Part shown: in pieces, positions 10,402 to 37,104 of the stretch | Layout: the number at the start of each line of letters is the position of its first letter | Position numbering within the stretch: position 1 is the first letter of the stretch | Source of the DNA: Allacma fusca | Lineage: Eukaryota; Arthropoda; Collembola; Symphypleona; Sminthuridae | Length of the DNA: 64,000 bases | Direction of reading: 5' to 3' | Assembly (NCBI GenBank): GCA_947179485.1 | Contig: CAMXBY010000043.1 | Location: forward strand, 248,001 to 312,000 | Notes under the pieces: model-generated | What the model was told of the DNA's origin: nothing | Database searches by the model: none | The model's input: only the letters and a program-made list of their open reading frames with translations | Position numbers and translations under genes: made by a program

Positions 10402-10548
10402 ATGCCCAGAAAATCAAAAAAAGCTCATATATTAGACAAAATGTACTCCATGCGACAGGATTTACTGAATCAAAGACATACGGGTAACCACATTGATCAG
10501 GAGAATAACGAAAGGTTGATTCAAGATTTGGATGAAGCCATCCTGGAG
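10402..10548 (+). CDS. HARBI1-like gene, exon 1
   Basis: It encodes 49 residues beginning MPRKSKKAHIL, basic and then rich in N, Q and E. It ends at CTGGAG before GTATCA, phase 0. The frame stays open for 15 more codons into the intron, so an unspliced short product is formally possible but has no family support. Confidence 0.8.
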
Positions 10549-13500
10549 GTATCAACCCTATTTGTAGACAGGAATACATGTGCATTAAAAAGATAAAATA
10601 ATATAATTTCAATTTTATTACAGGCGTCTAACTGCCGGTACGGATCAGTAGAATCAGTACCAAAAAGCACCGGTTTCGTTATGGATGTTTTGCCCGCTTG
10701 TAATGAGTCTCGGTTTAGAAGCTTTCTACGAATTAACCCTTCGGAGTTTGAAGAAGTCATGAAAGCCGTGGAGACCAACGACGTCTACAGAAGCACAGCT
10801 AGCAATGCACTCCCGGTGGAATTGCAAGTTGCCATTTCTCTTCACTGGTTTGGCAATGAAACCAAAAGTTTCAATGAAATTGCAGCTTTATTTGCAGTTG
10901 GAGATGGATCCACCATTACAAGATGTATTGATAGGTTTGTTAAAGTAAGCAATTTTAAAAAGTTATTAGTGCCAAATTTACATGTTCATACCACTCTTTT
11001 TAAAAATACCGTAATTGCCGTCACCGTGAAGTGGAAAAACTCGGGTATTATTTTTAAGGTACGGTATCGTAAATTAATCAGATTATGGGAAAACATGAAT
11101 ATAAATCGATTTTTATGGTACGTGTACAGTCAACTCTCGCTATAAGGGATGCTCAAGGGACTGGCAAAATCTGTCCTTTATAAACATTAATCCCTTATAA
11201 GTAGGGTATGTCGATTGAAAATGCCCTGCAGTATTTGCCCGCCCAGCTGAAAATGCCCAAAATGCCTGCCCACATGCCCAAAAACTGGGCATGTGGGCAG
11301 CTTTTGAAAATGCCCTGATTTTGGGCATTTTGGGCAGGGCAAGTTGGGCATTTTGGGAATTTTGGGCATTTTCATGGCACCAAAATTGGATTGCTAGCAT
11401 ATATTCAGAATATCCATCCAAATGCATGAAATCGCAGCCAAGGAAAAGTTACAAATGTGAATGTCTGGTTATTCGCTTCTTCGCGTATATTTTAATGGCA
11501 AAAACAGTCAAATCAATTTTATTTTATTGACATGAGGTGATATCATTTATCACTCCTATGAAAATAAAATTTCCTATGTAAACAATAATATGAAATAAAT
11601 TTACATATATGCGTCACTGATGGGTGGGCAGAAGTTCTATTTTCTTTTGAAGTACGAACTCCTAAAGTAAACATCTGATGGTAATGGATCAGTCAAAATT
11701 TAAATGGATGATGTAGCTGAATTTTATACTCATTTTATTCTACATCACTATTGTCTGCAGTTGGCAACGATCAGCCAAAAATGGCTCGAGTAGAAACCAA
11801 TATACATCCTCCATACGGGTCCCCCAAATATTGTTGTTTGTAGTTTTATGGTGTATAAAACAATTACCGTATGAGTTCAAATTTTAACCGAAAAGTCACT
11901 TCTGATCACAGTAATATACATACATGCATAGGGGTATGTGAATACTCCCAGGATAGTGGAAGTTCATTTTAAATCGTCTGCAGTTTGGAAAAATAGTTCC
12001 TAGAATATTTTAATTTATAGCCGTATCGTGTAATATAGGGTTCTCAGACGTCCCGGAATGCCCGGGACAGTCCCGGAATGACACTCCTTGTCCCGTGTCC
12101 CGGAAGAGTGTATTCCGGGACACGTAATGTCCCGGAAATGTCAAGCTCAAAAAGTTATGAAAATTATTAGTTTTTAAGATAAAAATAAAATATTTCCTTC
12201 TACAGAATACAAACGAGAGCACCATGTGCCATCTACATAAAACTAATAAAACCATAAAAATGCGCTTACAAACGTAATAAAATCGTTTTAGCAGCAGGAA
12301 ACTGTTTGTCTTTTTGAGAAGTTGCTTTAAAGGTTACGCGCCCAGGTCTGCGTGAATGTTCAGGTCTGTCCAGAATCCCTAAAAAGCAACCTCTATGCTT
12401 TCTCCCCTACCTTAAATAGTGACTTCCCTGGATATCGCCTGAACAACTTAATGTAATTCTACTATCAAAACTTAAAGTTAATCATTGCGAATCTTCATGA
12501 ATTTTGGTGTTCCTGTAACACTTGAAGACGTTGAGCCCTTCGGAAAAATAAACAAAAATGGAGGCAACTGACGAATTTAAGTTGCATGGTGACCGTTCAT
12601 TTAACATTCGAAAATATTTGAGGGTGTTCCACTAATCAGAAATGCATGAAGTTTTATTATGAGACGCTTTTCAAAACTAGGATGTTACTATAAAATTTTG
12701 GTGATCTTTAAGGGATCACCCCTTAAATATTAGTTGTACCCTTAATTTGGTTTACAGGTCACTTGTGTACATGACATGTTGAGCATACCAGTTCATGTTT
12801 TTCTTTCATTTGTGCAAAAAAATGCCTTGATTTCTATTTTTAAGAATTGTTTGCACGAATACAGGAAAACAATGAATCGCTATTCTTTTTCAACATTTCG
12901 TTTTTGTTTACTTGGGCAGGTTTAAATTATAGTAACCAAGTGTTAATACAACTTAGTCCTGTCCAAGTCAACAAAAAATAATGCCATTTTAGAGTACATA
13001 AAAAATGGGGTTTTAAAAAAACCAAAACGAAGATGCTTTCACGGCTCAAAATGGGAAAAACCAGCATTTGATATGAGAAAAATTAGAGCAATAATGAACG
13101 AAACAAAGCATTTCAGGTGCTACCGAGTTATGTTTATGTATGTGTTTGCACCCGAGATGCTTTATTCAATTGTTTTCTAAACTTTCTTGATAATAATATT
13201 GTGAGACCATTATAATAGTAATAAATTATTAAAATTTTCATGAAGTTCAAATAATTTAATTAGTTGTTAATATTGGAAAGACTTCAACTCACGTCTCGAA
13301 TATTGAACGTTATGATTATGACAACCATAATTAGCATTTTTAAGTAATTAATTTTTAAGGGCCCAAGCCCTTGGTCGCACATCATAAGATTTTGCACACT
13401 AACTTGCAATAATTAGGCAGACATGTTTGCAAATTTTTATCAAAGTTGTTGTAGGCGAAGGCCTTTAAAAAAACTGCAATGTATTAGGATAGGCAATTCC

Positions 13501-16500
13501 GTAGACTCAAGGAAAAACTTAGGTATAAACAGCTTCAGATCTCGTTAACTATACATGCTGAAGATGTGCGTTAAGCATTGGACCTTTTACAAATTCTGTC
13601 ATTGACTTTAAGCACTTAATATTCGGATTTGGTCAAAGGGTGTAGAAGTTATCCTTAAATCTTTTTTTTCAAAGGGGGTAAGTGCATATCTACGCGTTTT
13701 TTACGAAAACGAATTTTTTTCAAAAGTTGAAAATTCTAATTTTTGCGAATCAGTAAAAAAAAAAAATGAGAATGGAAATTCCGCAATGCTAAATAAGTTA
13801 CCAAATCTTGCATCTTGGAATTTGAATGGTTATTTTGAATAAATTAACACTTTGTGTACGCCTTTGAATATTTAGTACAGTGTGACTAATATGATCAGTC
13901 ATTAACTTTTAACCAAAACGGTTCAATTCTAACTTTGGGAAGAGAGTAAGTACAGTATAAGATTAAGTTTGGGGTTCATTAACAATTAACACATGTCCGA
14001 CATTAATTAAAATGAAGTAGCTATCATGCATTGATAGCGCTCTGGATGGTTCAAAAGGTTTTAGCCCTTTCGTGGTTGAAAATCAAGTCAATAATCAATT
14101 TTTGTAAGAGTGAATGCTTCACGTCCACGTAAACAAAATCTCCAAAAATTAGCCAACAATAACGTGCATGTACTTCACTGGCAAATATCATTATTGTCTG
14201 AAATCTTCCTACTGATCTAACAATAAGCAATAGTTTTACAATTCCAAAAGGTCGAAATAAATTAATAGATAAAAAAGCTTAAAAAATGAAGTTGCTTTTG
14301 CGCCCTCAAAAGTTGAAACCAAGTTTTCTGGTAGATGCTGTCAGAATAAATCCCAATGTTCATTGAAAATGATGAAAACTCTTGAAATGTCGAAAACCAG
14401 TACCACGATATTATTGTCGCTGATGCAGAAATAGCTGTGAATAAGTTGGTTTGCAATGAATACTGAATTTAGCAATTTTGAGATGTAAGTTGGAAATTAT
14501 TAATACTATTGAAAGAGTACTCAAGAAAAAATTATCGATCGTGCTATTGCTTTTCGTCATTTCAAGAGTTTTCATCGTTTTCAATTAACTATTGGGATAA
14601 ATTTACCCCTGGAACAAAAAAGCGCTTTTAACAGGCTTTGAATTTTTTGAAATCAAAGACCTATTTAATCAGACATTTTGATTTCAGTGGTAATAATATT
14701 TTTTTGAAAATGGAACTACTAAATTTGAAATCAAAGGAATTATTAGTATCCATGGCTTATTTACTAAATTTTGCCGATGCACTCGGTATTAAATTAAACG
14801 AGGACCAGCTGTACAATACATTTTGCTTACTTCGTCAAAGTTATGAGCTTTTGATTGTGATTAGATTGGTCGGTCCAAAGTGGATTGAGTTTTTAAGAAA
14901 GAACAATGTCCTGAACTATTCAAGCTTGTATCGTCCGTGCTGTCAATTCCTGTTGGCAACGCTTTTGCAAAAAGGTATTTCAGCCTAATGAAGAAAGTTT
15001 GGACAGCCGAGAGAAACTTCATGTCAACGGAACTTGTGAAGGCAGAGCTTCACGTCAGGCTTAATATGCCCTTTTCGTTTGTGATTTTTTTTTCTTCTTT
15101 GAAAAAACCAGAAAGCAAGAAAATGTTATTAGATGCCAAAAAGGCTGAAAAATACAATTAAAAATCTTGTATACATTAAATTTGTAAAAAATTATTTTGT
15201 CCCGGAATGACGTTTCGAAAAAGTGGGAACCCTAATCGTGTACTGTGCAGGTGTTTCACAAATTGTAATGTTCAATATGACCTATGGTATTCAAACGTAT
15301 TTCATCACCAGTTGAATTAACTTCGTCAAAATAATGACATACAGAATAAAATTTTCGAGATAATTTCAAACGCTTTTTCTCCAAAATTACAAAGAAATCT
15401 TCAAATTCATTGTCAAATTTTATAGATTGTTCTATTATATTCCACGATTCTGCCCAAAATGCCCAAAATGCCCTTGCCCAATATGCCCAATTATGCTGCC
15501 CTCGCCCTGAAATGAAAATGCCCAAAATGCCGGACATTTTCAAATCGACATACCCTACTTATAAGCATAGTGTACAGTGAAGTTTCTATATAGTGGTTTC
15601 CAAGGGAGTGACAAATTCCTGCCACTATATAGGGATGCCACTGTATGTTTCTAATGGTTAACTATATAATTACTTTTAATGTTTTTAGACAATAACTGTA
15701 ACTAAATACATTTATAAATTGATTTATGTTTACAGAATACTCAAAATTACGAGGTATGTATTAAGCTTCATTGAGTTTAAGATGTTCAGTAACTTTAGGT
15801 TTCCTCATAATATTAATAATATTAGTCGTAACAAAAGTTTCGACTGCAAGGTCACCATTCCAGAAACCAAAATCCTGGAATTATGGCAATGAGAATTACT
15901 TCCACTGAGTACTCTGCAGTTTTTTCACAATGAGGTTTTGCTTGACTGTCTGTTTAATGTCATTTTAAATCTTCAATATAATAATTCAATTTATTTTAAA
16001 AAACCAGCACGAATTGAAACTTATTAGAAGTGAGCCAAGGCAAAAATGGCAATGATTTGTGTTATAACTGTTCGTTTTAACCAGTGATGCGATCGAACCG
16101 ATTATTTAAAAACTCGATGTTGGTTCGTATTCGAATTCGGATTACCGATTCGAAGTATGCCTTCCAATCGAAGTTGGTTTTACAAAACCAAATCGAATAA
16201 ATCAAGAATTCGAACAATTTATTCGAATCGAATATCAAAACTAGGTATCGATTGTTACTTCTTCCGAGTTATTCGGTTCGAAGTTGGTATCGAATCGGTT
16301 TTTTCGATTAATCGGTTAATTATATCCATTCCTCAATTTATTTAGACAACAAAGTCTAAGATTTAATAATTCTTGAAAATGAGTTCCCATTCCTTGTCAT
16401 TAAGTACGTAGCGACGAAGTGTTCTTTCGGCCCGAACTGTCGCCTTAATTTTCTGATACAATTGACTAAGAACTAATTGCTTTTGGGTGTTTATTTCTTA

Positions 16501-19500
16501 AACGAATCATAATGTTGGTCGTGGTCCCGGATGACACTTTAACAAAGCTTGATCTATGTATAAATAAAAGTAATACCTACCATTAAACGTTAGACACCAT
16601 AAGAATACTATGGATGAGGTTAGGGCTTCTTTCGGGACTTGACGTTCCGAGGTTTTCAGGACGGGACCGTGATGGGCACAGTTTCGGAACAAAATCTTTG
16701 TGCCCATTTTATTTCGGGACTGAATGGCGACGAACGTTTTTGTCCCGAGGATTTCGGGACTGGACATAATTGTCGGCGGGATAAAAAATTGTCCCAGTAG
16801 GTTACAGTATAAGTATATGTCTTTTAAGTAATTTCAAAATATGTAAGAAGCTTATTTGCATTAAAATCTTACTTGAAGTATTTGCAATGATGCAGATTTT
16901 CTTTTAACGTAAAATGATTGTGGGCAACGGATAGGTTTTGTGGAGTTAGCTGTGGAGTATGCTCACAGCTTTCAGCGTCACTGGTGTTAATTAGCAATTG
17001 GATTTGGGGGAAAATAGAGCTCAGATATGAGGAAAAGGAATAAAAAAGGGGAAAAATAGGAAATAGTGGAGAGAGATTGAATAAGGAAGGAATGGAGAGT
17101 TAAAAATAGTGGATGGGGGAATGTGCAGCAGGCAGAGTGCACACACTCTTGCTGAGAGAGAGAGATGAGACGACGGCCGTGGGAAATAAGTGCGTATGTA
17201 AGATATGGGATTTACTCACGCAGTACAGTTTTATTGTATATTGTACATACAAAGGTTACACAGTTTGACTGTTCTCACACGCGTCTCTTGGCCTTTCTTG
17301 GTCTGTGGCTCGGGATTCTCTCGTCTTTTTGAGACTGGAGAGGCTGGGGTTTATATACGGAGGCTAGCACTTATGTGCCAACCTCCTGGAATATTTCCTA
17401 CATTATTCTGACCAATGGAAATGTACTAAACAAAGGTACCTAATGCATTTTACAAAGGTTATTGTACTTTTGTATGACATATATGTACATCAATGTTGCA
17501 GTATGGTATATTTTAGCTTATAATCATTCCTAAAGCCAATAAGGGCTTAACACTGGTGACAATATCAATGATATTCGCTTCCATGTAATTTTAAATTTAC
17601 GAAAATTAATTTTCAAGACGTTCAGTGTTGAGGTTAAGACTCTACTTCCTCACTACATTCCTCATCAGCCCAGTGGTTACTCTCCTCGTGGTAAGAATGC
17701 CGTGGGGTTTTAACGTTGGTGGAATTTAAACTGTGGCGGGAATTCGATTGTTCGAAAAACCAATTTCGAATACAAAGCGATTAAAAACAGAATCGGTATC
17801 GAAATTGGATTTGTAGTTTGACTAATCGGTTCGAACTTTAATCGGTTTGATAAACCAATTTCGATTGTTCATTCCATTCGAATTATGTTCGGATTGACGC
17901 AACCGAACCGATAGCTCTTGGCTAATCGATTCGGCTCGTATTCGAAATCGAACATTTCGATTATAATCTTAATCGGTCGCATCACTGGTTTTAACTTAAG
18001 TCACGGATCATATGCCGTAAATCCAGCTAATCATACCAGGGCGTAAGTAAACCACACTAATAATCCAACTGTATTAACATTTGAAATTACAATTGAACCA
18101 ACCGACATAAGCATTATTAACCGCCCGCACGTTTTATAACACCATGTTATACTTTTACAGCCATTATCTAGCTAATTTTATGCCAACTGCCATTATAATT
18201 ATATCTGAGCCACCGTAACACATAATAGTGGCATTATAGAGGGAATGCCATTATAGCGGGTGCCACTATACTGTATACCTTTAACATTGCAAACCTTTAG
18301 GGAGGGTTTTTTGATGCCATTAAAGAGGGAATGCCATCAAAGAGGAAACCACTATATGGGAAATTCACTGTAATACATTATGTGAATGGGAATCGGGACT
18401 ACAAATCCCGATCCCTTACAAGGGTATCCCTTATAACGAGAGTTGACTGTATAAAGATACAAAGTAAAGAATCCAACATAATTATTCAAGACAGTTTAGC
18501 GTCTTTTACTGTATAGCAATTAATTTAAGAGTATTAAATGTGCAGAAATTCCTTATATTATGAGCTAAATAGAAAAAAATCAAAATTCAAGTTCCATTTT
18601 TCATTCGTATGAAACATGAAAATCTTGTGACACAAAAGTATAGAAGAAGGGTTAAGTTAACTTTTCGGTATAATGTACACAACTCAAACACACTTAATAA
18701 AGTGCATGATGCACTGTGCATCATGCATACGCATAATTTTATTAAAAAAAATCCAGAGAATTGCCTGAGGGTTTATTATTTCTGTTTTAGGTCTGGATAA
18801 ACCTTGTACAGGGCAACACCGCAACGTATGTTCGGAACAGTTCAACTCACGTTTTGAACTAAATTGAAACGATACGTTCGATTCAATTCAATTCTCTCAA
18901 AACTTAACTTATTGATTAAGTTCATAGCTTTGAAATGAATTGGGTTGGATTTTACTAAATTTTGTCTTGAATTATGTCGAAAAAGTGAATTTCATTCAAC
19001 TAAACATTTCCCGAGTAGAAATTTTGGTCAGTGCACGGTTATTAGTACGTTAAAAATTAACGTCAATTGGTCCGAACAAAGTCCAGTTGTGACGTCCAGC
19101 TAAATACAATATGTCCGCTTTGAAAACGACAGCTGAACGTCACCACCTTGCGAAAATGTAACTATAGAAATAACGTCTGGTTTACGCCAAATACTATCGT
19201 TAATGCAACGCAATTTAACCTCCCTGTTCACGTGGGTTGAAATATAATTTACTGATTTAATTCCATCCCAAAAAAATAATTAAATAGTTAGTGCATTTCA
19301 TATTTCTATACAAGTCATCATTCAAAGTTGTCCGCATCATTCTTCTGTCCTTATTCCTGACTTCAAATCTCAATTTCTGCCCACAAATCGTCAAAATTAA
19401 ACCTGAAAATAAGAAATATTTCGCTTTTAGATTTAGTTGCAACTAGAAAGGCCCAACAATTAGTTATCTGCATTTTTTAAAAACTTACAACTAATTATAA

Positions 19501-22500
19501 TATTTTGAGGACATTATTTGCTTTGAATTCACAATTAAATTATTTATTGTTTATTTCTGCATTAGAAACTATTTGCTGGAAAGAATGTTCATTGTTGGTA
19601 GGGATATACTTGATAGTGTTGGCGACACACTATCAGATATTAAAAATGTTGAAAATTGTCACAAATTGAAACCCTATAATTATTCCAAATAAATATTAAG
19701 GTTTCCTACCTTTCAACATTAATAATAGTTAACATTAAGCGTAGCCTTACAAGTACATACTTCCTTAACCATAATCATTTAAAAATTACTTACCTTTGAT
19801 AAACAGGAACATATTTAGTACTTACATTCTAATAATAACTGTTATCATAAAACTCGTTGCTTCAAATAATACACACGACTTACACTTTGATATAAAATAA
19901 TAATTTGTTTTGCTTACCTGAAATAATTGACGAAAAGAAGTAATCACTGGCTGTTAGAAGTTACAGGAAAGTAACAGATCAGATCCAAGTCATTTCAAGT
20001 TCGGACTATACAGCGCTCTCGGCCAGATTGTAAATACGCATGTGCCGAGTTTACTATGTTTGACCAAAATTTGACGTTGCATTAACGACCGGGCTTGACG
20101 TATGTACGTAATGGTTCTATAGAAGGCAATTGCTAGGAGGCACTAGTATTTACGTCAAGTTTACGTAAATATAACCATTGGTATAGTTGCTGTCGTTATT
20201 TGGCTGGGATTTTGCGTTAACTAAACGTCGTGAATGTTCTATTGATTAACGTTAGGTCCTGATGTTAAAAGAACGTTGTATTTTTGTTGAGAATTGCTAT
20301 AATATTTGTGATAGTCTCATTGACGTTCATGGGACATCGCATCTGTGATCAAAAATTTGAGCTTAGTCAGTTTATCGTCAACTAACGCCAATTCCCATTT
20401 TGAGACGTAAATCTGACCAGTCATTTCTACTCGGGTTGCCATTCAGAATTGAATTGGGCCGAGTACTTACTAGACCACAGGTTTATGAGCCTCCCACTAG
20501 ATTGGAGATTACGATATCTTATGGAGATATGATATCGCTTCAAAACACCGAAGATTATCGTAGCATATCGTACCTTAAATTTTTAAGGTAATTACGGTAT
20601 TAATGCACTGCAATACCGTAGTTGACTTGGCTGGTCCCAATCATTGGGAACAAATATTTGCAATGCCAAAAATCCTAAAAACTGAATAAATTTTATGCAC
20701 AATTAGGCCATTCGTTTACTTAAAAATCAACACCTTTACTGGCCGGATCATGAAGAGAGAGCTCAGCTTCTGAGAAAAAGTTACAGGAGGGGGGAACTTC
20801 CTGGAGCAATTGCTTTCATGGACGGTACCCATGTAAATCTTGCTGAACGACCCTCGCGGAATGCAGAATCATATTATGACAAATCAAAGGTATGTGACTA
20901 ATTTATTGCATGTAGCAGGAATCGGATTTCTGTAAGTCTCCCATTTCTGCATTTCCCTCAGCAGTTTAAAAAATCCATGTTTAAAAAGATCACCGATTTC
21001 CAATATCCATACTGACAAAAATATTTTTATTAAAAGAAAATCCATACCAAAATAATGTGAACTAATCTAGAATTCCATCTGCATAATAAATATCCCTGAA
21101 ACTCGAAATTTGAAAAACGCTGGAACGAATTTAAAATTCCGTTTGTAAAAAAACACTTTCCTTTCGAGATTTTTCCAGCCGGCACGGGATTTTGACGGGT
21201 ATATGTAACAATAACTACGCTTGACGGGCTACTAGTTGAATACATTACACGAATTGTAATTTTACCTTTTAAACAGCACGACTTGATGCACGGGACTTCT
21301 AGCAATATTATTACTTCATCGCATGCGCGCCTTGTTATTTAGTAAAAGTTTCATGACACTATTTAATGCTGAAGAAAACTCCATTTAGCAGTGCTACCAG
21401 ATGTAAAATCATGAATTCCGGGACACATTTTTTTTGTACTACAAAATTTTAAGTTGTCTAGGTAATGGTGAAAAAACAGTAAGTAGTATATAAATAATAC
21501 ATAAATTGTTCATTTTATTACCGATAAATGGTTTAGTATAACCTAGTACCTGTACCATGACCCAAACTTTGGGTACCTCAAAAGTGTGAACCTGTACCTG
21601 AAAATGTACCCATTTAACAGGTTCAAATTTTTCGATCCTTAACCTGACCCGATGGCATTTTTGTAGTACACGCGCCTGATTAGTACCTGAACCCGAAAAA
21701 GTTCCCAAAAGACGACCTGAACCCGGATATTTTTAGACCGGACCTGAACAGAGGTGTGGAAAATACATGAAATTTATTATTGAAATACAAAATACAAATA
21801 CATTTTCAGAAAAGTTAAAATACAAATATAAACTACAAATACCAGTTGTAACTTAGTTAAGATACATAATAAAATACAAATATCCGGAGTCATTTGGGCA
21901 AGATACAAAATAAAATACTTTGCATCCAACAAACAGAGAAAATATGAAATAAAAATACCTTATTTGAAATACGAAATATAAATTGAAAATGCTCTCAAAT
22001 TTATCTCAAAGTACTGAGATCTGAGATGTATCTAAAGATTATTCTCCCAAAGTATTTTGTATAATTCGGCCAAATAATACGAGATTTAAAAATTTATCAA
22101 CTTACGTAAGGTAACTGAACGTTTTATTAGACTTTCGAGTTGTGCATTTGTGTGTATCAAAGTAAATTAACATGGTCCTAGGTACAGAATATTTTTCCTT
22201 TAAACAAATAATCCTATAACTCCTGGGTAATGTATTTACATTCGCGTCACTAATTTAGCTAGCTTTAAAGTTCTCAGATACAATGAATTTTATGTATTTA
22301 TACAGTAAGTTCTCGAAACCCGTCAAACAAGTTTCAAAAACTGGTTTAAAAATGTTTTAAATTTGTGTTTCTACATTTAAAATATTTATTTAGCATGTTT
22401 TAGAGACGACCTTAACAATTGTCAGAGTCATGTATATTAAAACTTTATTTTGTATTTGAAATACTGGCCGGGTAAATACAAGATAAATAAATACAAAATA

Positions 22501-25500: not shown

Positions 25501-28500
25501 TTGTGCTGACACAAAGCTCACATATCTATGTGAGAACTTGTGCAAGCCACCTCCCACTTATGTCAGCGTACGTAGGAACGCACAACATTTCTGTGTCAAA
25601 CATATGCAAGTCAGCACAGATTTTGTGCTGTCCGTGTTGGGTATAAGATGGTAATTACTTACGGGCTACGGGCTTTTTTTATACTTTTCAGGCCAAGCCG
25701 GATTTTGTAGTAGAACTTCAGGTCGGGTTATTTTAGGTTTTAAGTTATTTTAGGCAATTTGAGTTGCTAAATTGCTAAAGGTTTAAAATACTTGATCAAA
25801 TACCTAGAAACATTGTAGTCTAATAATTTACTTATTTACAAACTTGGGAGGTTTGTAAACATATTACTGGTCTGCTCCAGAGCAGTGCTGCGATCGGGTC
25901 AATTTAAAACCTTGACCATGAACTTGACTTGATCATGAAACTTCAAGTAATTTTCAAGACACAACCTGAACTTCATAACTCATGTTCCTGTAATTACTTG
26001 ACTTGTCAAGTTCAAGTAATCAAGTAAATTTTCTAAGACCCGAACTTGATCAAGTAGTTACAGTTCCAAACTTGACTTGCACTTGACTTGACCATGACTT
26101 GAACGTGACTTGAACTCGATAATTCAAGTTAATTATCACAAGAAATGAAATATGTGCACACAATTTATTTTTAGCATGCATCTGCAAATTATTTCCTTCC
26201 GACTGAAAACCAAAACACACTCAGAAAACAATTTTACTACTATTTTTTATTTAAACCCATTTGAGGACGTCATTTAGCGTATACTGAATACAGTAAAAGT
26301 CAGATACAGTAAAACTTGTCTATAATGGTTTCTCTAGGGGAAAGAAAATTTGACCACTATTAACAGGGACCATTGTGCCGGATATAGTGGTCCTAACCAC
26401 TATATACAGTACTTCAAATTAAATAATTCTCACGCAGGATTAATGCATTAATGCTTGCTCAGTATGCAATATTTTATTAGCAATTACACTTTATTAAATT
26501 AATTACTAATTTTTGAATGCTTTAGACTTTTAATATTGTTCCCTACAAGAAATTCTTGAAGGAAATGTAAACAATGGTGGGCCGTTACCCAAGACGTCAT
26601 AATTGTAATTCCCTTTAAAATAACTTCGAAAACCAATCATACCGAGCACACTTAAGCACCACTCCAAGCCTCAACACAAGAAATGCATGTTTTGGAATGT
26701 GCATGACGTTTTTGAAGTTGTCTAACTTCGCGCGATTTAAATTTACACTGATGTTTATTCGGACCGTTGTATGCAGAGTTGAAAGCCTGCATTTCTATAC
26801 GAATGGTCAAAAATCCCAGTCCATAATTGACAGGGGACCACTATATAAAAAACTATTATAAGTGGGGTGTACGCAATGTTAAAATATAGGACTTATGACG
26901 GGGAAACCTGACATGGGCCATAATGTGGAGGAAACCACTATATAGACGGCCACTATATACAAGTTTTACTGTACATATTACAGTACAATTTATAAATGGA
27001 TTTCCCTTACAAGAAACGTCTGTGTAAATGAAAGTTGGGGCCAAACAAATGCATCCCGCGTATCGATACATTCCCTATAAGTTGATCTCTTATAATGTAT
27101 AATGGACATTCACTGTATATCTGACGAGTATTATATGATGTCAAGTTTTATTTAATGTTCATATATGTAGGTATATATACATATAATTACCTATTTGAGA
27201 ATTCCCAGTGCTCTTAACTTAATATTTATAAAGTAAACTAGTATTTACTTGTTTATTAAATGATTGTTGTAATGGGCCATGCAAGCTCATTTTATATTCG
27301 AATTTAAGTAGCAATATGGATTATCATTATATTTTTTTCGTTTCATGGAGAAGCCACTGCAACAACTAACAACGTCAGTAAACAAAACCTTCATAAAACG
27401 GACTCTGGTTTTGAATTTTTCTTTGATTTATAACATACGCAAACAAAATACCCGGAACATGACCAGAAATTGGATTGTGATTTTAAAATTTCTTCCGTCC
27501 TTTATGGCATACGCAATCTAAAATTACTTGAACTTGACCATGAAATCTCCAGTTCATGTTCAAGTTTTTTCTTTCCATTACTTGACCCTGAACTTGACTT
27601 GGGGTTCAAGTAAATTGGTCTTACTTGTACTTGAACCTGACTTGTCTTAGAATGTTATGGTGCAGGTAGACTACTAAAAAAACGGTGCAAGTATATCAGG
27701 AGTATTTTTAAGAATCGAGTTCTTCAGGGAGAATTGCACTTGCCGATGGAACTTCAAAATGATGATCCAAGAAAAAAATTGAAATGGTTTTAAAATTTAA
27801 AATGGTTTAGAAAACAGTGAAACCGGTAGTCAAATTGTTCTCTACGCTATATGCTGGACTCCAGCAACCATCGGAAACAAGGCTTCATGTTTTCATTTAA
27901 GGAAATTTTAATCAGTTTAATCTGAACCTTAACCTGAATCTGAGGATGATTCTGAGAAATATAAACATGTAGGTGAAATCCTGGTTCTGAAGCTGAATCT
28001 AAAGTTTAAGGTTTCAGAAAATGATGAACCTGAAACTAAACCTTAACCTGAAGTATAAGCATGAATTCTTAAGGAAAACCTTAGAAAAGTCTGAACCTGA
28101 AACTGAGTAGTCTACCAGCACCATTATGGTCAAGCCAAATACGTACTTGAACTTGACCCGAATGATTCAAGTAAAAACATTTGCCTACTTGAACTTGACC
28201 CGAACTTGAACTTGAAAACTCAAGTATTACTTGAACTTGTCCACAGCACTGCTCCAGAGCTGCACCTGAAAAATACCCGTCGGGTCGGGTTCGGGTTAAC
28301 TTAAATTAGGTACCTGAATATCGGGTCGAGTGCGGGTAGGTGTAAGATCCGCACCTGAAAATTCAGGTCGGGTGACTGTCAAGTTCGGGTAAAAAAAATA
28401 CCTGAAGAATATATCGGGTTCAAGTTCGGGACACAGTATTTGAATTACCTGAACCCGAACTTGACATTTCAGGTAATTTGCAGGTATTTATTTCCGCCAA

Positions 28501-31500
28501 AAAATCAAACATCACGTGAATAAAACCTTCCATTTTGCATGCAATATTTATAAGGGCACTTGGTTTGGGAACAACAGTCAATCCCGAAGTGTTTAGCAAA
28601 CCGTCAACCAGGCTTGTACAGTGATTATCGATGAGAGTTAAAGTGCAATGGTTTTTTATTTAACAATTATTAGAAGTAAGTCATAATTTCGATATAATTA
28701 GCACAGGCTTTAAGCGTGTTTGAATTGAAACTGTAAGATTTCAATATAAGTGAAGAACATTCTGGTCTGTTCTTTGAGCTGGACCAGGTTTAATTGGTCT
28801 ATCAAGGTTCTTGAACCAGATACATTTGGTCCTTTCGTAACCAGGCAACAGACCGGAACAGACCAAAATTTCTGGTCCGGACCAGAACAGTCCCATTGCT
28901 ACTTGCAAGTATCAGGTAGTACCTGAAAAATACCCGTCGGGTCAGGTTCAGGTCGGATTATCTAAAATAAAGTACCCGATTCTCGGGTCGGGTGTGGGTA
29001 GTTGCAAGATCTGCACGATAAAGTTCTGCATGCAATATTTATAAGGGCACTTGGTTGGGAGTTGGGACGAACAGGGTGGTAGGGGTCAGATTTTTATGGG
29101 AAGACGGGAATACGCTTCACAGGGAAAAATATTTCTGGCAGCGAAAATCTCAGAAGGAAGGGATTGCTTTGAACACAGGCATTTTTAAATTCGTTGACCT
29201 TATTTTGGCAGGGATTTTCTATTTTTTCGGCGTGTTTCAGGAACTTTTATTTGAGAAAACAGGAATTTTGGAAAAACAGGAAGATAAGATTCAGAAGGAA
29301 AATTCGGAAAGGATATTCCAGGTAGATTTACAAAAATCAAATCCATGCAGGGAGGTCGAATACCAAAGTGTTTAGCAAACCGTCAACCAGGCTTGTGTTA
29401 AAATAGAAACTAAGTTTTCAACATGAGTGAAGAAGTAACCGTAGTCATTAAAGAATTAAATCAAAGTGAAGATGACAGAAGACAAGGCCCATAAAGGACT
29501 CATAAATACACCTGTATTTTTATTCCTATTACTCAAACGTTTAGAGCTATCAATAAGATTAACATACGGTCTAGTTATACCCGTCGAAAAATACCTGACA
29601 AGTATAGTATTTGCCCAGATCCGATTGAGAAGGTTCGGGTCGAAGAAAAGTTTTAATTGAAATGTCAGGTTCGGGTCGGGTTCAGGTGCGGATCCTGATT
29701 TATTGATACCTGAAAGCAGCTCTGTCTTGAAGTCAATGCATCAGGTCTGAACCTCTTTGAACCCCATTTTGAAGTCAATACATCAGGTCTGAATCTCTCC
29801 TAACCCCTCCTAAAGTCAATGCATCAGGTCTGAACTCCCTCTGAACCCCCTCCTAAAGTAAATAAACCAGCTCTGAACCCCTCTGAACCTTCTCCTAAAG
29901 TCAGTTCACCAGCTCTGAACCCCATCCTAAAGTTAATAAACCAGCTCTGAAGCAGTGCCTGTCATGGGAACAGATAAGTTGTCCCCGTTCCCATTCACGT
30001 TCCCACAGTTTTGGTTTGGGTACAAGGCAGAACCCAATTCCCAAATTGCACCCGAAATCTTGTGAACAAAAGTGCCGAATGCAAATCAATTTTGGGTGCA
30101 CCAAAACCCGTACCCAAAACCCTGGAACCCGTTCCCGTACCCGAAACGGAAGTTCATATATTCAAGGATAAACGTTATACATTATATATACTTATTACTT
30201 CAATTTTTGCTAACAATGGCTACACACAATTGCACTCATTCTATTTGTTATATTTCATTCTACTTAAGTAATTAATTTTGTAATGTTTAAGTCACCTTAC
30301 AACGGGTAAGCACAACATATCCTTATTATTGATCTCTACCTGTCCGTTGATTTAAAGCTCCGCGCGTTCATGGTTCAAATTGAAGCTTCGCGCTACTCTT
30401 AAAGTAAGCGCGCAAGATCAAGGCATACAATAAGTCTCCTCGACAGGGCTTGATTCGCAAGCCGTTTAACTTTTAATTTGTACATTCACACTTCACACTA
30501 CTACATCTGCAAGTAATTGCCCCTGTGAAACACAGGGCTTTTACTAGTAATTAATTGTTATTGTCATATTTCATCATTCGACGTGAGATGATCTATTCAA
30601 GCAAAGAGCGTTTGCCTCTAAACTACAACAGCGACACAAAAATAGTCGGTCACACCACGTCAAAACAAATGAGTCATGTAATTATCGTTATGCTCGCAAG
30701 ATTTCTCTGTACACGGGTACACATGAACAGTAACGGGTTTTTAGCATATCGTTCCCGATCCTGTTGGGTACAGATCCCATTCAGCCTGTATTGCACCCGT
30801 TCTCGTATGGGTTCCTGTTCCCACATACTAAAATTGGAAAGGTTGGTTCCCAAACCTGTACCCACACTTTTGGGTGAGAATATTTTGCACCCATGTGATA
30901 CCCGTTCCCGTTCCTGCACCCAAACACCCGGGTGTGACCCGTTCCCATAACATACACTGCTCTGAAGCCCTCAGAACCCCATCTTAAAGTCAATCAACCA
31001 GCTCTGAACCCCTCTGAACCAGGGTTGGGTTTTTTTTTCAAAAAAACCAAACAACCAGGTTTTTTTGGTTTAAACCGGTTTTTTTTTGGTTTAAACCAGG
31101 TTTTTTTGGTTTAAACAAATTTTCAATCCAAAACATTCATTAATATGCAAAAACATGTGAATTTGAACAAATTTACTTATTTCCCAAACTCAGTAAGTAT
31201 CAAAAAGCATTAAATATTTAATAATTTAGATATAATTTTAACGATAACTTTGCAGCATAAACACAAGTTTGGCATTTTTCATTTTACAAACGATTCCGAA
31301 TTTCTAAATGTACAAGACTAAAAGCTAATAGTATTATTTACTTCACTAAAGTTTAACTACACAATATCACAGTAACTGCACAAGTTTTGTGCACTACGAA
31401 ATATAAGCATTTTGGATTGAAAATATTAAAAGTTTAGGTGTTTGGTTTAAACAATTGGTTTTTATAAAAAACCGTTTGGTTTAAACCGTGGTTTAAACCA

Positions 31501-34500
31501 TGGTTTAAATCATTTGGTTTAAACCAAACCAACCCTGCTCTGAACTAGGGGGGCCACTTTTGTGAAGCGTCAAATAAGTACCTAATAATTAAAGATTAAA
31601 ATGTATTAAAAATTGATATTTAGAAATAATTAGCACTACCAAATATACATGAAATTATGTACCTACCTAAGTTATTGTGAATGCATGCTCTTCCAAGTGT
31701 ACTTCTTATCTGACTTGGCAGCTAATAGCAGTTCTTTATTCTGTAGAAACTGATTTTACATACATTAGCAAGTTTTGTTTTGAAAGTTGACAATAATTTG
31801 CAATTCCGAAAGGACGTTATCAACTTCGAGAGAAATTCTCTGGTCAGTACATATTTGTCGCATTAGCGAAAATATTCTTTCAGCATCTGCATTGCTGCAA
31901 TTGACACTCAAAATCATGGATATCAGCTTGAAATGCCCAGAATCCTTCGTCCCATTTTCTTCGAAAAACTTTACATATTTTTCAGCCACAGAAGCAGATT
32001 TGCAGGCACCAGATTCTTTCAGTTTATCAGCAAAATCTGACAGTTTGCAGTATTCTGGAGGGGGGTCTCAAGGGTTTCAGAGGGGTCCAGGGCTGGTTTA
32101 TTAACCCTAAGAAGGGGTTCAATAGGGTTCAGACCTGATGCACGTCAGTGTTTAGTACGACCCAAGTTTGTGCTCGCACTGTCGTCAGGTCAAAAGGAAA
32201 TTAAAAATCTTAATTTATTTACTAGATGCGTTAAATTCAAGGTTCTGTGAGACTTTTTAAGGTTTCCTTCATACAAGGAGAAAATATCAGGACAAAAACA
32301 ACCGCGTAAAATAAAAGGCTGACCTTAATTCTGGAAGTTCTAAAAATTATAATTTACATTTGCTTCACGAATTATTAGTACGAGTATTTACAATATTAAT
32401 GTCAACCTTAGCTGTAAAAACCATATCAAGTTACAACTGAGCTAAAGTTGAAGGCCTAATTAGAATAACCGATAACATTATAATTGTATGGTTGTCCTTA
32501 ACTTGTACTTTCCGAGAAAATACATGAACAGTACTGTCTGCACAATGTAAGCAACTTGCTGGAAACTGAATGTACATTACAGTTACAATCGGTGCTCCTA
32601 TTATGTCGACATGGGACGTCGAAAATAACATTGTCCTTGTGAAAATGTGACATACCACTGTCCATACGTAAACACACGCTTAGATAAGCAAACGTCTACT
32701 TTGCTGAATCTTTGCAGTTTATTCTAGACCTTTAAGAGGAAAAGGTTGTTCAGATTGTCTAACAGTAGTTCTGACATTCAATGTGCAATTGACTTGAAGA
32801 CGTACAAGAATTGCAATTTTGGAACAAGAACAAGAGAAATATTATTATGTCGACAGTTTGAAGTGTTGATAAGTCCTGCTTTCTAAGACTGCTTATCTCA
32901 TCATCTAGATGGCAACATTTTGATTTCTTAGCGTTACATTATAATATTGTATAATTTTCAATTTTTATGAAAACGTAGTTAGAAATACATTGTAATAAAC
33001 ATAAAAACATCTTTGATGCGTTTAACACTAAACTATGGCAAATTGCTGTCTAAGTATGAAACACTAAATTGAATACTAACAATGGACTCTTTTCTCCTGC
33101 CATACTCCGATCGGCATGATATGCACATGTATGGAAAGCCCTTGCTGAGAGCTTTCCATACATGTGCATATCATGCCGATCGGAGTATGGCAGAAGAAAA
33201 GGGTCCATTGTAAGATCCAACAACAGGCATTTGTCTAATAAGACAGCTATTTATATTGCTGAACTGACTGCACGGCATATAAGCAGTCAGTCAGGCCAAA
33301 ATGAAATTTCTTTATATGCGGATGGTAATGGAATGTGTACTACTGTCGCTCTCCAGTACAGCTCAGTGGCGCCGGAGTGTCTCATGTTATGGGACGGCAG
33401 GAGTTCGAATTCTGACGACATCATTCTTTGAATTAGTAGTGGATTTCCGGAATTTATCTTCAAACTGATAACGTTAATTAAAATGCGGGTCTTCCGACAC
33501 GACTAAACTAAAAGGACATATTATACAGCCTGGCTTTGGTTGAAGTACAAAATAATATTTACGAATTCACACTTGAACGTAAATTCAATAAACTTCCCGG
33601 GCTATAGAAGACATTGACAAAAATATATTATAACAAGTAGGAGTTGAAATACCTTGATTGGATTTGCAATTTAATTTATTTGAAATGCGCAAGATTAACT
33701 GTTAATATTGAGAATTTCCAACATAAAAGTCACATTAGTTAAAACTATAAATTTCCCTTGCAGTTAATAAGAAATTAATTACATAGAATTATTCTACAAT
33801 TCATCATTGCCAGCACAGGTTCCTACAAATGAATTTCAAACTATTTTGCATGTTAGATAAACTCATTTTTAAGCAAAACCACTAAGATCCACGCCAGCAA
33901 ATTATTGTTCAATTGATTGGATTGGCTTCAAAAGCAGAAATTTGTACAGAAAAATGTATGTACAATTGCGCTAGCATAAGTTTCAAACAAATGAAAAAAC
34001 GCCAGTAAATCGAATTCGATTCCCGAAACGTCCTAGAATTGGTGAACTTCTGCACTCGGCCATCAACGCTATACTTATCTGTGCAGAATTTAAAGCGATA
34101 TCTTCTGTGTACCTAAACGTTTATGTTAATTTCGGGGTCTCTTGTTGGGCAGTTCGGCAAATACCAATTAAATCCTTGTTTTTTAAATCAGCTCTTACCT
34201 GATAAATCGCAAATCTTAGTATATTGCCATTTATATGAGCAATGTGGGTGAACATACAATTAAGAACTCTGTAATATATACTTAAATGTAAACATGTTTC
34301 TCATTTTTAGGTGCAGTTAGAAATACAGGAGTGTTAAATTCAGTCGGCATTTTATTTGCAGAATCACAGTATTCAGGTGCAAATCATATGTGACACAAAC
34401 AAAAAAATACGCGCCGTGCACACTGGTTTTCCTGGTTCCGTTCATGATAGTCGGGTCCTTAGAGAGACGGACGTATATCAGCGAATTGATGAGTTCTTGG

Positions 34501-35093
34501 GTCCCGACGAATATATTTGTGCTGATCGGGGTTATCCTCTACTGCCCAAGATCATGGTTCCCTTTAAATCCAATAGCAGGGATGGCGAGATATTTGGATT
34601 GTCCGAGAACGACCTGACAAGATTTAATAAATTGTATGATGTAATTGTAATTATGAAAGCAGTGACGTTTCCAATGATTTCATGACAGCCAGAACCATTA
34701 CTAATGACTAATGTTTTTTGCAATACTTGTTATAGCTTTTCGTCAAGACGGGTGAAAGTGGAGCATGTGAATGGTTTGGTAAAGGAAATGTTCCCATGTC
34801 TAAAACGTCTGAATGTACCGATAAGGAATGACTACCAGCATACTAGAGCATGTCATATCATTGAATGTTGTTGCATACTCTACAATCTTATCCACGATCT
34901 ACGAACAGCCGAAACTCTGGACGAGACAGCACGTGAATTGTTGAGTACACAAGAGAACCGTCAGAGAGTGCCAGTACCAGAACAGGAATACGATGATGAT
35001 ATTCTTGATGACGAGGAAGATTTACCTCACGCGAATTTACAAGCAAGGACAAAACGGGCCCAATTAGTTCGGCGAGTACTTGAAAACCTGTAA
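10402..35093 (+). CDS. HARBI1-like nuclease gene (PIF/Harbinger-derived), five exons
   Basis: Exons 10402-10548, 10624-10944, 20707-20889, 34362-34633 and 34736-35093 join in phase (0, 0, 0, 2) to 426 residues. All four introns (75, 9762, 13472 and 102 bp) are GT-AG. The protein has a basic N-terminus, a helix-turn-helix-like region (about residues 110-155) and a DDE_Tnp_4 nuclease: D195 in FMDGTH, D246 in GSVHDSR and E317 in VKVEHVNG form the expected triad, with ADRGYP between. The C-terminus is acidic (DDDILDDEED). Human HARBI1 is somewhat shorter (about 350 residues). Family members are Harbinger transposases, or domesticated proteins that act with a Myb-like partner. No Myb partner gene, terminal repeats or target duplication were seen. 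The start is the first ATG after an upstream in-frame stop. Open exons and sound splice sites across 24.7 kb of transposon-filled DNA argue for a kept host gene; a young transposon copy is less likely. Splicing is inferred from phase and motifs, not from transcripts. Confidence 0.88.
10624..10944 (+). CDS. HARBI1-like gene, exon 2
   Basis: It encodes 107 residues covering the N-terminal part of the Harbinger transposase: the SRFRSFLRINPSEFEEVM segment, LQVAISLHWFGNE and the helix-turn-helix-like SFNEIAALFAVGDGSTITRC. The acceptor is ATTTTATTACAG and the donor AAAGTAAGC, both strong, phase 0. Confidence 0.88.
12033..15234 (+). mobile_element. hAT transposon with decayed transposase, nested in the GGGCATTTT element
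   Basis: The ends are TAGGGTTCTCA on the left (from 12036) and, inverted, TAGGGTTCCCA on the right. ATCGTGTA occurs at 12025-12032 and 15235-15242, with three extra bases (ATA) between the left copy and the terminal repeat. The word GTCCCGGAATG repeats at 12050-12140 and recurs near 15200. Internal frames at 14700-15160 encode the end of a hAT transposase, so this copy descends from an autonomous element. Confidence 0.82.
14700..15161 (+). pseudogene. hAT transposase C-terminal remnant
   Basis: Two adjoining frames carry hAT family sequence: LLNLKSKELLVSMAYLLNF with KLNEDQLYNTFCLLRQ (about 14709-14880), then after a frameshift near 14900-14940 the dimerisation (hATC) motif VLSIPVGNAFAKRYFSLMKK followed by WTAERNFMSTELVKAELHV. 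It ends at a TAA at 15159-15161. Only the last quarter of a transposase is recognisable and the N-terminal BED finger and catalytic D residues were not found, so it is inactive. Confidence 0.8.
16625..16800 (+). repeat. Dispersed GTCCCG-word repeat, relative of the satellite monomer
   Basis: GTTCCGAGG..TTTCGGGAC and ACAGTTTCGGAACAAAATC align with 46265-46420 and, inverted, with the GTCCCG core of every satellite unit after 46480. No ends were defined. Confidence 0.6.
17122..17652 (-). repeat. Probable solo LTR (fossil)
   Basis: Read on the minus strand it starts TGTAGTGAGG, has an ATTGG box, then TATATAAACC, then CAATAAAAC about 150 bases further, and ends near CTGCTGCACA. That order fits U3-R-U5 of an LTR. 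No partner LTR, internal region or clear target duplication was seen, so the family is open (retrovirus-like or Ty3-like). Confidence 0.42.
18452..19009. other. Intron 2 stretch without gene
   Basis: AT-rich DNA. From about 18840 to 18990 GAATTGAATT/TTCAATTCAA words recur and reappear just after 20435, which suggests that an older element was split by the insertion at 19010-20435. No ends were found for it. Confidence 0.35.
19010..20435. mobile_element. TIR element, CCCGAGTAGAAAT ends, superfamily unclear
   Basis: CCCGAGTAGAAAT at 19010 is repeated inverted at 20423-20435. AACGTC/TTAACG words recur near both ends (19045-19200, 20050-20390). No convincing target duplication was seen, so the superfamily is undecided. 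No transposase was recognised. Confidence 0.5.
20707..20889 (+). CDS. HARBI1-like gene, exon 3 (first catalytic Asp)
   Basis: It encodes 61 residues including LYWPDHEERAQLL and AIAFMDGTHVNLAERPS, the strand with the first catalytic aspartate. The acceptor is TGCACAATTAG and the donor AAAGGTATGTG. The exon is exactly 61 codons, so both borders are phase 0 and match exons 2 and 4. It has no in-frame ATG before the motif and is easily missed as a separate open frame. Confidence 0.88.
21748..22673. mobile_element. hAT-type element, AAATACAAAATAC family
   Basis: AGAGGTGTGGAA on the left (21750) is matched by TTCCACACCTCT on the right. Flanks GGACCTGA (21740-21747) and GGACCCGA (22674-22681) agree at 7 of 8, with two extra bases before the left terminal repeat. 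GAAATACAAAATAC words fill 21775-21990 and 22440-22660. No transposase is present. Confidence 0.68.
23039..23160. repeat. Left end of the GGGTAC hAT family
   Basis: CAGTGCTCGGACTGGGTACG and the following ~115 bp match the left end of the elements at 46909, 51977, 54139 and 60689 with only a few differences. The right end is missing. It runs into GTAGTTGACC-word sequence resembling the element at 5140-5770. Confidence 0.75.
23384..23691. mobile_element. hAT-type element, AAATCCCTG family
   Basis: The left end CAGTGGTCGGAGTTTTGTAA and inverted right end CAGGGGTCGGATTTTTGTAG match at 17 of 20. A perfect duplication CCCGGCGG lies at 23376-23383 and 23692-23699. AAATCCCTG words recur throughout. 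It belongs to the same family as 24515-25112 and 29073-29353. Confidence 0.82.
24515..25112. mobile_element. hAT-type element, AAATCCCTG family, with 20-bp tandem array
   Basis: The left end CAGGTGTCGAATTTTTTT and right end (inverted) CAGGGGCCGGATTTTTGT are related; flanks CCAAATTT and CCCAATTT agree at 7 of 8. CAGGGA words recur in both halves. A twelve-unit minisatellite occupies its left half. Confidence 0.72.
24551..24790. repeat. Minisatellite, 12 units of 20 bp
   Basis: The unit is AAAAAATATTTCTGACAAGG, repeated without spacers. Only two units deviate: one has CAATG instead of CAAGG near 24729, and the last ends CTGGCAGGG. Such homogeneity implies very recent expansion. Because 20 is not a multiple of 3 and the unit has no stop on the minus strand, it creates long spurious open frames there. 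Confidence 0.97.
25257..25643. mobile_element. MITE with perfect 18-bp ends and TAA duplication (PIF/Harbinger-like)
   Basis: TACCCAACACGGACAGCA at 25257 is perfectly repeated inverted at 25626-25643, flanked by TAA on both sides (25254-25256, 25644-25646). A 3-bp TWA duplication is typical of PIF/Harbinger; a TA duplication with shifted ends cannot be excluded. The interior has GCATATG and TGTGCTGAC words and no coding capacity. It lies in intron 3 of the Harbinger-derived gene. Confidence 0.75.
26307..26971. mobile_element. pogo-like TIR element
   Basis: CAGTAAAACTTGTCTATAAT and inverted CAGTAAAACTTGTATATAGT match at 18 of 20 and are flanked by TA (26305-26306, 26972-26973). CACTATATA words recur near both ends. 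A related but unpaired end, the inverse of CAGTGAATGTCCATTATA, lies at about 27095-27116. Confidence 0.75.
27661..28120. mobile_element. Small TIR element, AACCTGAA family
   Basis: TGCAGGTAGACTACT on the left and inverted TGCTGGTAGACTACT on the right differ at one base. The flanks share TTATGG (27655-27660, 28124-28129), so a hAT-sized duplication is likely but imperfect. AACCTGAA/CTGAACCT words repeat at 27920-28105. Confidence 0.55.
28531..28628. repeat. Segment duplicated at 29029-29395, copy 1
   Basis: GCATGCAATATTTATAAGGG through GTGTTTAGCAAACCGTCAAC is repeated downstream at 29031-29395, where an AAATCCCTG-family element interrupts it. The two copies also share AGTGAAGAA about 120 and 30 bases further on. 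Confidence 0.75.
28757..28895. repeat. GACCAG-word repeat, ~130 bp
   Basis: It starts ATTCTGGTCTGTTC and ends GGTCCGGACCAGAACAG, with GGACCAG/TTGGTC words between. The ends are inverted relatives of each other, so it may be a very small TIR element. Confidence 0.45.
29073..29353. mobile_element. hAT-type element, AAATCCCTG family, third copy
   Basis: AGGGGTCAGATTTTTATGG near the left end and CAGGGAAAAATATTTCTGGC relate it to 24515-25112. Flanks GGACGAAC and GGTCGAAT agree at 6 of 8. Its insertion is confirmed by the uninterrupted copy of the surrounding segment at 28531-28628. Confidence 0.6.
29953..30959. mobile_element. hAT-type element, GGAACGGGT family
   Basis: CAGTGCCTGTCATGGGAAC and inverted CAGTGTATGTTATGGGAAC are flanked by the perfect duplication CTCTGAAG (29945-29952, 30960-30967). 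GTTCCCGTACCC words recur near both ends; the middle (30170-30700) is unrelated, with a GCGCGC-containing patch near 30360-30415. No transposase was found. Confidence 0.87.
31020..31537. mobile_element. hAT-type element, GGTTTAAACC family
   Basis: CAGGGTTGGGTTT on the left and inverted CAGGGTTGGTTTG on the right are flanked by the perfect duplication CTCTGAAC (31012-31019, 31538-31545). GGTTTAAACC, itself a palindrome, and TTTTTTTGG words dominate both ends. 518 bp, non-coding. Confidence 0.88.
31765..31989 (-). pseudogene. hAT transposase C-terminal remnant
   Basis: The frame includes FKLISMILSVNCSNADAERI followed by FSLMRQICTDQRISLEVDNV, a hATC dimerisation motif (S.N...ER.FS). Only about 75 residues remain and no catalytic region was found. 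It differs clearly from the remnant at 14700-15161, so at least two hAT lineages left coding fossils here. Confidence 0.75.
32151..33080. other. Intron 3 stretch without gene
   Basis: AT-rich DNA with no convincing frame, terminal repeats or simple words. Confidence 0.4.
33081..33209. repeat. Near-perfect hairpin, 59-bp arms, 11-base loop
   Basis: The left arm (33081-33139) and right arm (33151-33209) pair with about two mismatches. The arms contain CATACTCCGATCGGCATGAT and the loop is CCTTGCTGAGA. It lies in intron 3 of the HARBI1-like gene. It could be a fold-back MITE, or could give a microRNA-like or siRNA hairpin if transcribed. No target duplication was seen. Confidence 0.93.
33345..33432 (+). 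repeat. tRNA-derived SINE head (pol III promoter-like)
   Basis: AGCTCAGTGGCGCCGGAGTG resembles box A and its flank, and GAGTTCGAATTCT resembles box B, spaced about 40 bases apart as in tRNA genes. The body between them does not fold into a good tRNA. No poly(A) tail or target duplication was located, so the tail limits are unknown. Confidence 0.5.
33433..34361. other. 3' end of intron 3
   Basis: No gene or bounded element was seen. The last bases form a good pyrimidine tract and acceptor for exon 4. Confidence 0.4.
34362..34633 (+). CDS. HARBI1-like gene, exon 4 (second catalytic Asp)
   Basis: It starts after TTTTATTTGCAG and encodes NHSIQVQIICDTNKKIRAV, then GFPGSVHDSRVL with the second catalytic aspartate, then ICADRGYPLLPK. 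It ends two bases into a codon before GTATGATG. Confidence 0.88.
34736..35093 (+). CDS. HARBI1-like gene, exon 5 (catalytic Glu, stop)
   Basis: It starts after TTGTTATAG and completes the split codon as Phe. It encodes SSRRVKVEHVNGLVKEMFP with the catalytic glutamate, then CHIIECCCILYNLIHD, the typical helical end of the DDE_Tnp_4 fold. An acidic tail of about 50 residues precedes the stop. Confidence 0.88.
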
Positions 35094-37050: not shown

Positions 37051-37104
37051 TATAAGATGAATCACATACTTTTATTTGTATGAAATCCAATTTTTACTTT
37101 AACA

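What the first reader, a model, noticed from the sequence alone, without database searches (positions are those of the whole stretch)
10402..35093. Probable domesticated Harbinger nuclease gene whose exons survive in transposon-filled introns
Five exons join in phase with GT-AG borders to a 426-residue HARBI1-like protein with D195, D246 and E317 in place. The frame is uninterrupted over 24.7 kb, although introns 2 and 3 together hold about 23 kb of nested elements. A dead transposon should have lost its frame over the time needed for so many insertions. Seen: frames, splice motifs and phase. Known: HARBI1 is a domesticated vertebrate case. Inferred: independent or shared domestication in this animal.
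Basis: partly seen in the sequence, partly recalled or inferred. Interest (0 to 1): 0.75.

Follow-up and report, generated by a model that had tools for sequence, protein, structure and literature searches.

The report
Intact lone springtail Harbinger transposase gene
A jumping-gene enzyme gene in a springtail genome is still fully readable although its introns have filled with other mobile DNA, but the evidence does not yet show that the animal has put it to use.

Summary
Five exons (10402-10548, 10624-10944, 20707-20889, 34362-34633, 34736-35093) join with GT-AG borders into an uninterrupted 426-aa PIF/Harbinger transposase with D195, D246 and E317. No second copy was found in the genome held, which by size and scaffold lengths is the springtail Allacma fusca. 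The four intron positions recur among four broken relatives (44-48% amino-acid identity) with introns 2 and 3 of about 65-95 and 200-220 bp; here they have grown to 9.8 and 13.5 kb by insertions of repeats, some nested.

'Domesticated' is not shown. I used intronic repeats as a neutral clock. The one that could be polarised is about 0.4% diverged; the best-sampled one about 2.0%. At 0.4% a dead gene keeps its frame about 44% of the time, at 2% about 0.3-2.6%. A paralogous segment on another scaffold has both flanks, a 501-bp repeat and no gene, so the gene may have reached this site recently. No terminal repeats or partner MADF/Myb gene were found; orthologues, synteny and expression could not be tested. 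I rank 'last readable copy of a low-copy transposon family' above 'host gene', about 0.6 to 0.3. If domesticated, it would be the first springtail PIF case I know of.

The parts
10402..10548 (+). exon 1 (aa 1-49), ATG start, donor GAG|GTATCA
   Evidence: homologous exon 1 in relatives C12 and C5
10624..10944 (+). exon 2 (aa 50-156), donor AAA|GTAAGC
20707..20889 (+). exon 3 (aa 157-217), carries MDGTH with D195
34362..34633 (+). exon 4 (aa 218-308), carries VHDSR with D246
34736..35093 (+). exon 5 (aa 308-426), carries VEH with E317, and stop
10945..20706 (+). intron 2, 9762 bp; about 65-95 bp at the same place in relatives C17 and C5
20890..34361 (+). intron 3, 13472 bp; about 200-220 bp at the same place in relatives C5, C12 and C17
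11186..15540 (.). repeat A (11186-12030 plus 15235-15540; contiguous in three other copies) interrupted by repeat B (12036-15236)
   Evidence: own divergence of A 3 of 742 and 3 of 810 sites
16082..17987 (.). multi-copy repeat (16082-16985 plus 17601-17987), itself interrupted by about 0.6 kb
19010..20435 (.). multi-copy repeat, 29 other copies compared; 28 private changes in 1406 sites
21749..22675 (.). multi-copy repeat in intron 3
26304..26988 (.). multi-copy repeat in intron 3
10002..35328 (.). block that is absent from the paralogous segment C5:7239-10211, where a 501-bp repeat lies between the same flanks

Best explanation
A five-exon PIF/Harbinger transposase gene of a nearly extinct, low-copy transposon lineage. 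One copy came to lie in a repeated stretch of this springtail genome; later mobile elements inserted into introns 2 and 3 and swelled the gene from about 2 kb to 24.7 kb. The frame is still whole mainly because the copy and its insertions are not old enough for decay to be certain. If translated, the protein would be a DDE (RNase H-like) nuclease; in this superfamily the enzyme cuts DNA at terminal repeats together with a Myb/MADF partner (established knowledge). Neither terminal repeats nor a partner gene was found here, so it probably could not move itself. Shown: frame, splice borders, catalytic residues, shared intron positions, no second copy, broken relatives, repeats in introns, a segment without the gene. 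Inferred: age, lack of selection, loss of mobility.
For: Full DDE_Tnp_4 match. One DNA match each for exons 1-2 and exon 5 with 3' flank; by protein no other locus above 52% identity over any exon apart from short pieces up to 57%. The four nearest relatives (C5:24101120-24102629, C8:69098601-69099233, C12:30002350-30003721, C17:13466-14384) share the intron positions as far as preserved and are all damaged: stop in exon 2 and lost donor in C5, exons 2-3 missing in C8, broken frame in exon 4 in C12, cut off in exon 4 in C17. So the lineage looks like a dying transposon family. Intronic repeat A is about 0.4% diverged since insertion, when a neutral frame survives about 44% of the time. C5:7239-10211 holds both flanks (93% and 88%) without the gene. 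The genome has at least 160 DDE_Tnp_4 matches, many of them open, so an intact frame is not rare in itself.
Against: The best-sampled insertion (19010-20435) has 2.0% private change, at which a neutral frame survives with 0.3-2.6%. None of the insertions hit an exon (chance about 1-12% for 20 to 6 insertions). No terminal repeats at the ends of the gene-bearing block, which a recent transposon insertion should still show.
Confidence: 0.6

Rival explanations
1. Domesticated host gene: the transposase frame is kept by purifying selection for a host function, as in HARBI1 or the Drosophila DPLG genes; terminal repeats and partner gene were lost, and the introns filled because insertions there are tolerated while exon hits were removed.
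For: Intact frame and triad; no second copy found; no terminal repeats; neutral survival 0.3-2.6% at 2.0% divergence; no insertion in exons; all four nearest relatives broken.
Against: The clock partly collapses when polarised; a paralogous segment lacks the gene; no MADF or Myb_DNA-bind_4 match on C48 (none among 59 and 13 matches; for MADF 150 of 182 candidates were scored); gene lies on an unplaced contig among repeats; picked out because it is intact, so chance must be judged over many loci; conserved-column test gave no support (11 of 37 columns deviate, within the range of other copies).
Confidence: 0.3
2. Still mobile autonomous Harbinger element whose terminal repeats lie farther out than was searched.
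For: Catalytic residues intact.
Against: No second copy found; 24.7 kb with foreign repeats inside; in 3.0 kb upstream and 3.5 kb downstream only one exact inverted match of 13 bp, AT-rich.
Confidence: 0.04
3. The five-exon join is a chance splice of unrelated open frames.
For: Alternative GT-AG joins also leave the frame open.
Against: Each intron position is shared with at least two homologous loci and the joined protein matches the whole DDE model.
Confidence: 0.02

Closest known systems
PIF/Harbinger transposases (Pfam DDE_Tnp_4)
   Same: DDE domain over the full model, D, D, E in place, length within the usual 400-500 aa (length range from PMC9710019, Background section read)
   Different: no TIR, no TSD, no second gene (Myb/MADF) found next to it
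Domesticated insect PIF genes: DPLG1-7, APLG, BPLG1/2 (PMC9710019: abstract, Background, sections 5 and 14 and passages read)
   Same: intact coding region, no close copy, no TIRs; BPLG genes are also transposase-only
   Different: those have orthologues, synteny and selection evidence; none of that could be obtained here. Four introns here, one in BPLG1 and BPLG2 (passages)
HARBI1 (vertebrates)
   Same: same superfamily (from PMC9710019 Background; no HARBI1 sequence was compared)
   Different: orthology not tested; no reason found to think it is the same domestication
Compact relatives in the same genome (C5, C8, C12, C17)
   Same: same exon layout as far as preserved, 44-48% amino-acid identity over 141-315 aligned residues
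   Different: short introns and broken frames

Membership tests
PIF/Harbinger transposase | DDE_Tnp_4 domain | tested here: met
   E 6.1e-37, model 1-158 of 158
PIF/Harbinger transposase | D, D, E catalytic residues | tested here: met
   D195, D246, E317
PIF/Harbinger transposon (whole element) | terminal inverted repeats with 3-bp target duplication | tested here: not met
   one 13-bp AT-rich exact match between 3.0 kb upstream and 3.5 kb downstream; local alignment at block ends no better than shuffles (131 of 200 shuffles as good)
PIF/Harbinger transposon (whole element) | second gene with Myb/SANT or MADF domain | tested here: not met
   no match on C48 among 59 MADF matches (150 of 182 candidates scored) and 13 Myb_DNA-bind_4 matches (23 of 23 scored); a spliced or diverged partner could be missed, and PF13873 was not tried
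Domesticated PIF gene | intact coding region | tested here: met
   426 aa without stop
[quoted passage not shown]
   one DNA match each for exons 1-2 and exon 5; nearest protein relatives 44-48%. The relatives do exist, broken and distant
Domesticated PIF gene | purifying selection | tested here: inconclusive
   neutral survival 44% to 0.1% according to the insertion age used; no orthologue for dN/dS
Domesticated PIF gene | orthologues with conserved synteny | not testable with these tools
   no other springtail genome is held; scans of viral and prokaryote contigs found no relative
Domesticated PIF gene | expression | not testable with these tools
   no transcript data
HARBI1 | orthology to vertebrate HARBI1 | not tested
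   no reference sequence compared; PDB search gave no transposase

The most novel reading that the evidence does not exclude
The first domesticated PIF/Harbinger transposase from a springtail: a single-copy host gene of transposase origin, kept under selection while intron 2 grew about a hundredfold by nested repeats, in a lineage thought to have paternal genome elimination, and independent of HARBI1 and of the insect PIF genes.
Probability: 0.28. Interest if true: 0.45.

Novelty: new member of a known kind. Interest (0 to 1): 0.28.

Why it matters
PIF/Harbinger transposases have been turned into host genes several times in plants, vertebrates and insects. A springtail case would widen the sample and give a gene whose intronic repeats could date the start of selection. 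As it stands, the locus is a useful caution: repeat-filled introns look old, but at least one repeat here can be shown to be very young, so an open frame is weaker evidence than it seems.

Tried and rejected
Exon 3 was first sought near 33.1 kb, where an open frame of 103 aa lies; it has no family match and the true exon 3 was found at 20.7 kb by its DGT motif. Terminal repeats: exact search and local alignment with shuffles gave nothing. Unpolarised 'window-only' divergences of 1.98-4.51% over seven stretches (190 changes and 24 indels in 5836 sites) were first taken as ages. I rejected them as ages because of repeat A: of its 18 window-only changes, 10 lie in the first 16 bases (probably beyond the true end of the repeat), 5 are on the other copies' branch and 3 are the window's own (with another alignment, counts 8 and 3 in 742 sites and drops 112 columns with gaps). 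Repeat B, nested in A, shows 3.88% by the unpolarised method though it should be no older than A. The figures are kept as upper bounds only. Conserved-column test: window deviates at 11 of 37 columns (30%); the 12 other sequences deviate at 7-53% (for instance L021 2 of 27, C5 8 of 29, C17 6 of 19, L033 10 of 19); uninformative (21 loci put in, 18 aligned, 12 kept after removing near-duplicates). dN/dS against the relatives was not attempted, because at 44-48% protein identity synonymous sites are expected to be saturated. PDB search: two weak matches, neither a transposase. Viral contigs with the exon 5 frame and prokaryote contigs with the whole protein: no relative. Rfam at gathering threshold: no match. 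A fold prediction was not run, because the spliced protein is not a letter-for-letter translation of contiguous window DNA. The 366-bp inverted repeats around relative C5 were not followed further, as they carry TTAA and not TWA at their ends.
Full report
What is there. The window is G000:C48:248001-312000, an unplaced contig of 327,481 bp in a genome of 392,743,791 bases in 91 contigs. Six large scaffolds of 81.9, 75.6, 66.1, 58.8, 55.6 and 48.1 Mb fit the springtail Allacma fusca, assembly qeAllFusc8.1; the scaffold of 66,084,411 bases equals the N50 printed in the genome paper (PMC10427803, first of three parts of the text read; lengths). Small differences remain: the paper prints 392,786,974 bases, 95 scaffolds and a longest scaffold of 81,897,997 against 81,893,619 here. 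The name is my inference; the tools give none.

The gene. Five exons with GT-AG borders give 1281 bases and 426 aa without a stop. D195, D246 and E317 are present and DDE_Tnp_4 is matched over its whole length. Intron lengths are 75, 9762, 13472 and 102 bp. Other GT-AG joins also keep the frame, but relatives guide the choice: loci on C5, C8, C12 and C17 break at the same residues, 49/50, 156/157, 217/218 and 308/309 as far as each is preserved, each position in at least two of them, with intron 2 of about 65-95 bp (C5, C17) and intron 3 of about 200-220 bp (C5, C12, C17). So the five-exon layout belongs to the transposon lineage, and introns 2 and 3 swelled later at this locus.

Copies. DNA searches with exons 1-2 and with exon 5 plus 3' flank find only this locus. 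The protein search gives 57 matching stretches at E 0.001 or better, of which five are the exons of this locus and 52 lie elsewhere (exon by exon, not one per gene; 98 of 136 candidates scored). The nearest, at 44-48% identity over 141-315 residues, are four damaged loci: C5 (stop in exon 2; the donor of intron 2 reads TT), C8 (exons 2-3 missing), C12 (frame break in exon 4), C17 (homology ends in exon 4). The genome has 160 reported DDE_Tnp_4 matches, with 150 of 299 candidates scored, many of them open, so intact Harbinger frames are common here.

Terminal repeats and partner gene. None found: one 13-bp AT-rich exact inverted match between 3.0 kb upstream and 3.5 kb downstream, and nothing better than shuffles at the block ends. 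Of 59 MADF matches (150 of 182 candidates scored) and 13 Myb_DNA-bind_4 matches in the genome, none is on C48. Elsewhere such matches do sit beside DDE_Tnp_4 matches, for instance C8:61428577 with C8:61430069 and C1:1211755 with C1:1213238, so the usual two-gene layout exists in this genome. The four relatives have no listed MADF or Myb match beside them either.

How old are the insertions? I compared seven intronic stretches with 3 to 29 other copies. Window-only change was 1.98-4.51% with 0 to 5.85 indels per kb. For 19010-20435, with 29 copies, 28 of 1406 sites are private (2.0%) and the window copy attaches between two groups of copies in a midpoint-rooted tree (branch 0.028). But for repeat A, adding L042 leaves only 3 changes on the window's own branch, in 742 sites or 810 sites; 8 or 5 lie on the other copies' branch, and 10 in the first 16 bases cannot be classed. 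Repeat B lies inside A, so B should be no older than A, although the unpolarised method gave it 3.88%. The unpolarised figures therefore can overstate age. Expected neutral survival of frame, start and splice sites is about 44% at 0.4%, 13% at 1%, 1.6% at 2%, 0.1% at 3.3% and 0.01% at 4.4% (using the indel-to-change ratio and an assumed fifth of indels that keep the frame; simulation 0.3-2.6% at 1.98% with two indel rates). A separate rough estimate that no insertion falls in an exon gives 12% for 6 and 1% for 20 insertions. These are suggestive, not decisive, and the locus was noticed because it is intact.

The segment without the gene. Scaffold C5 has, in reverse, window 8140-10001 at 93% (C5:8344-10211) and window 35329-35965 at 88% (C5:7239-7842). 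Between them lie 501 bases, a repeat with many copies, mostly about 80-98% identical. The window has 25.3 kb there, starting 400 bp before the ATG and ending 235 bp after the stop. Either the gene arrived here after the two segments parted, or C5 lost it. I cannot decide. The identities include gaps. C2 and C15 share only the left flank.

Literature. Markova and others (PMC9710019; abstract, Background, sections 5 and 14 and passages read) screened insects and Collembola for PIF domestications and report cases in Drosophila, Anopheles, Lepidoptera and Blattodea; the parts I read name none in Collembola. Searches for Collembola with Harbinger (4 papers) and for Allacma fusca with transposons (4 papers) listed no other paper whose title or abstract start is about such a gene; only listings were seen, and the library lacks most subscription journals.

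Verdict. I rate a late-surviving transposase of a dying family at 0.6 and a host gene at 0.3.

Noticed in passing
window 1263-3287 (+): 674-aa open frame that looks like a retrotransposon polyprotein with an integrase part (BEL/Pao-like, recalled, not tested).
   Followed up: no
window 24549-24784: 20-bp unit repeated 11.8 times at 99% identity, inside intron 3; open in three frames of the minus strand.
   Followed up: no
window 33076-33214: 139-bp palindrome (90.6%) in intron 3.
   Followed up: no
window 46905-61843: The same arrays recur at spacings such as 2162 and 6550 bp (51819, 53981, 60531; 48025, 53093, 55255, 61805).
   Followed up: no
window 35830-37397: Inverted repeats of about 0.5 kb at 86% and a 283-bp palindrome just downstream of the gene, with many copies in the genome.
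   Followed up: no
G000:C5:24098809-24104998 (merged from L070, L020, L030, L074): 366-bp inverted repeats, 98.9% identical, with TTAA at both outer ends, bracket the C5 relative of the gene; perhaps a Harbinger-like fragment carried inside another element type.
   Followed up: partly
window 14632-15161 and 31765-32067; C12 relative, 3' side: Fragments that resemble the C-terminal part of hAT-like transposases (recalled).
   Followed up: no
G000:C5:7839-8339: 501-bp multi-copy repeat that often occurs as inverted pairs; at this place it appears to be flanked by AAC on both sides (read from L092).
   Followed up: partly
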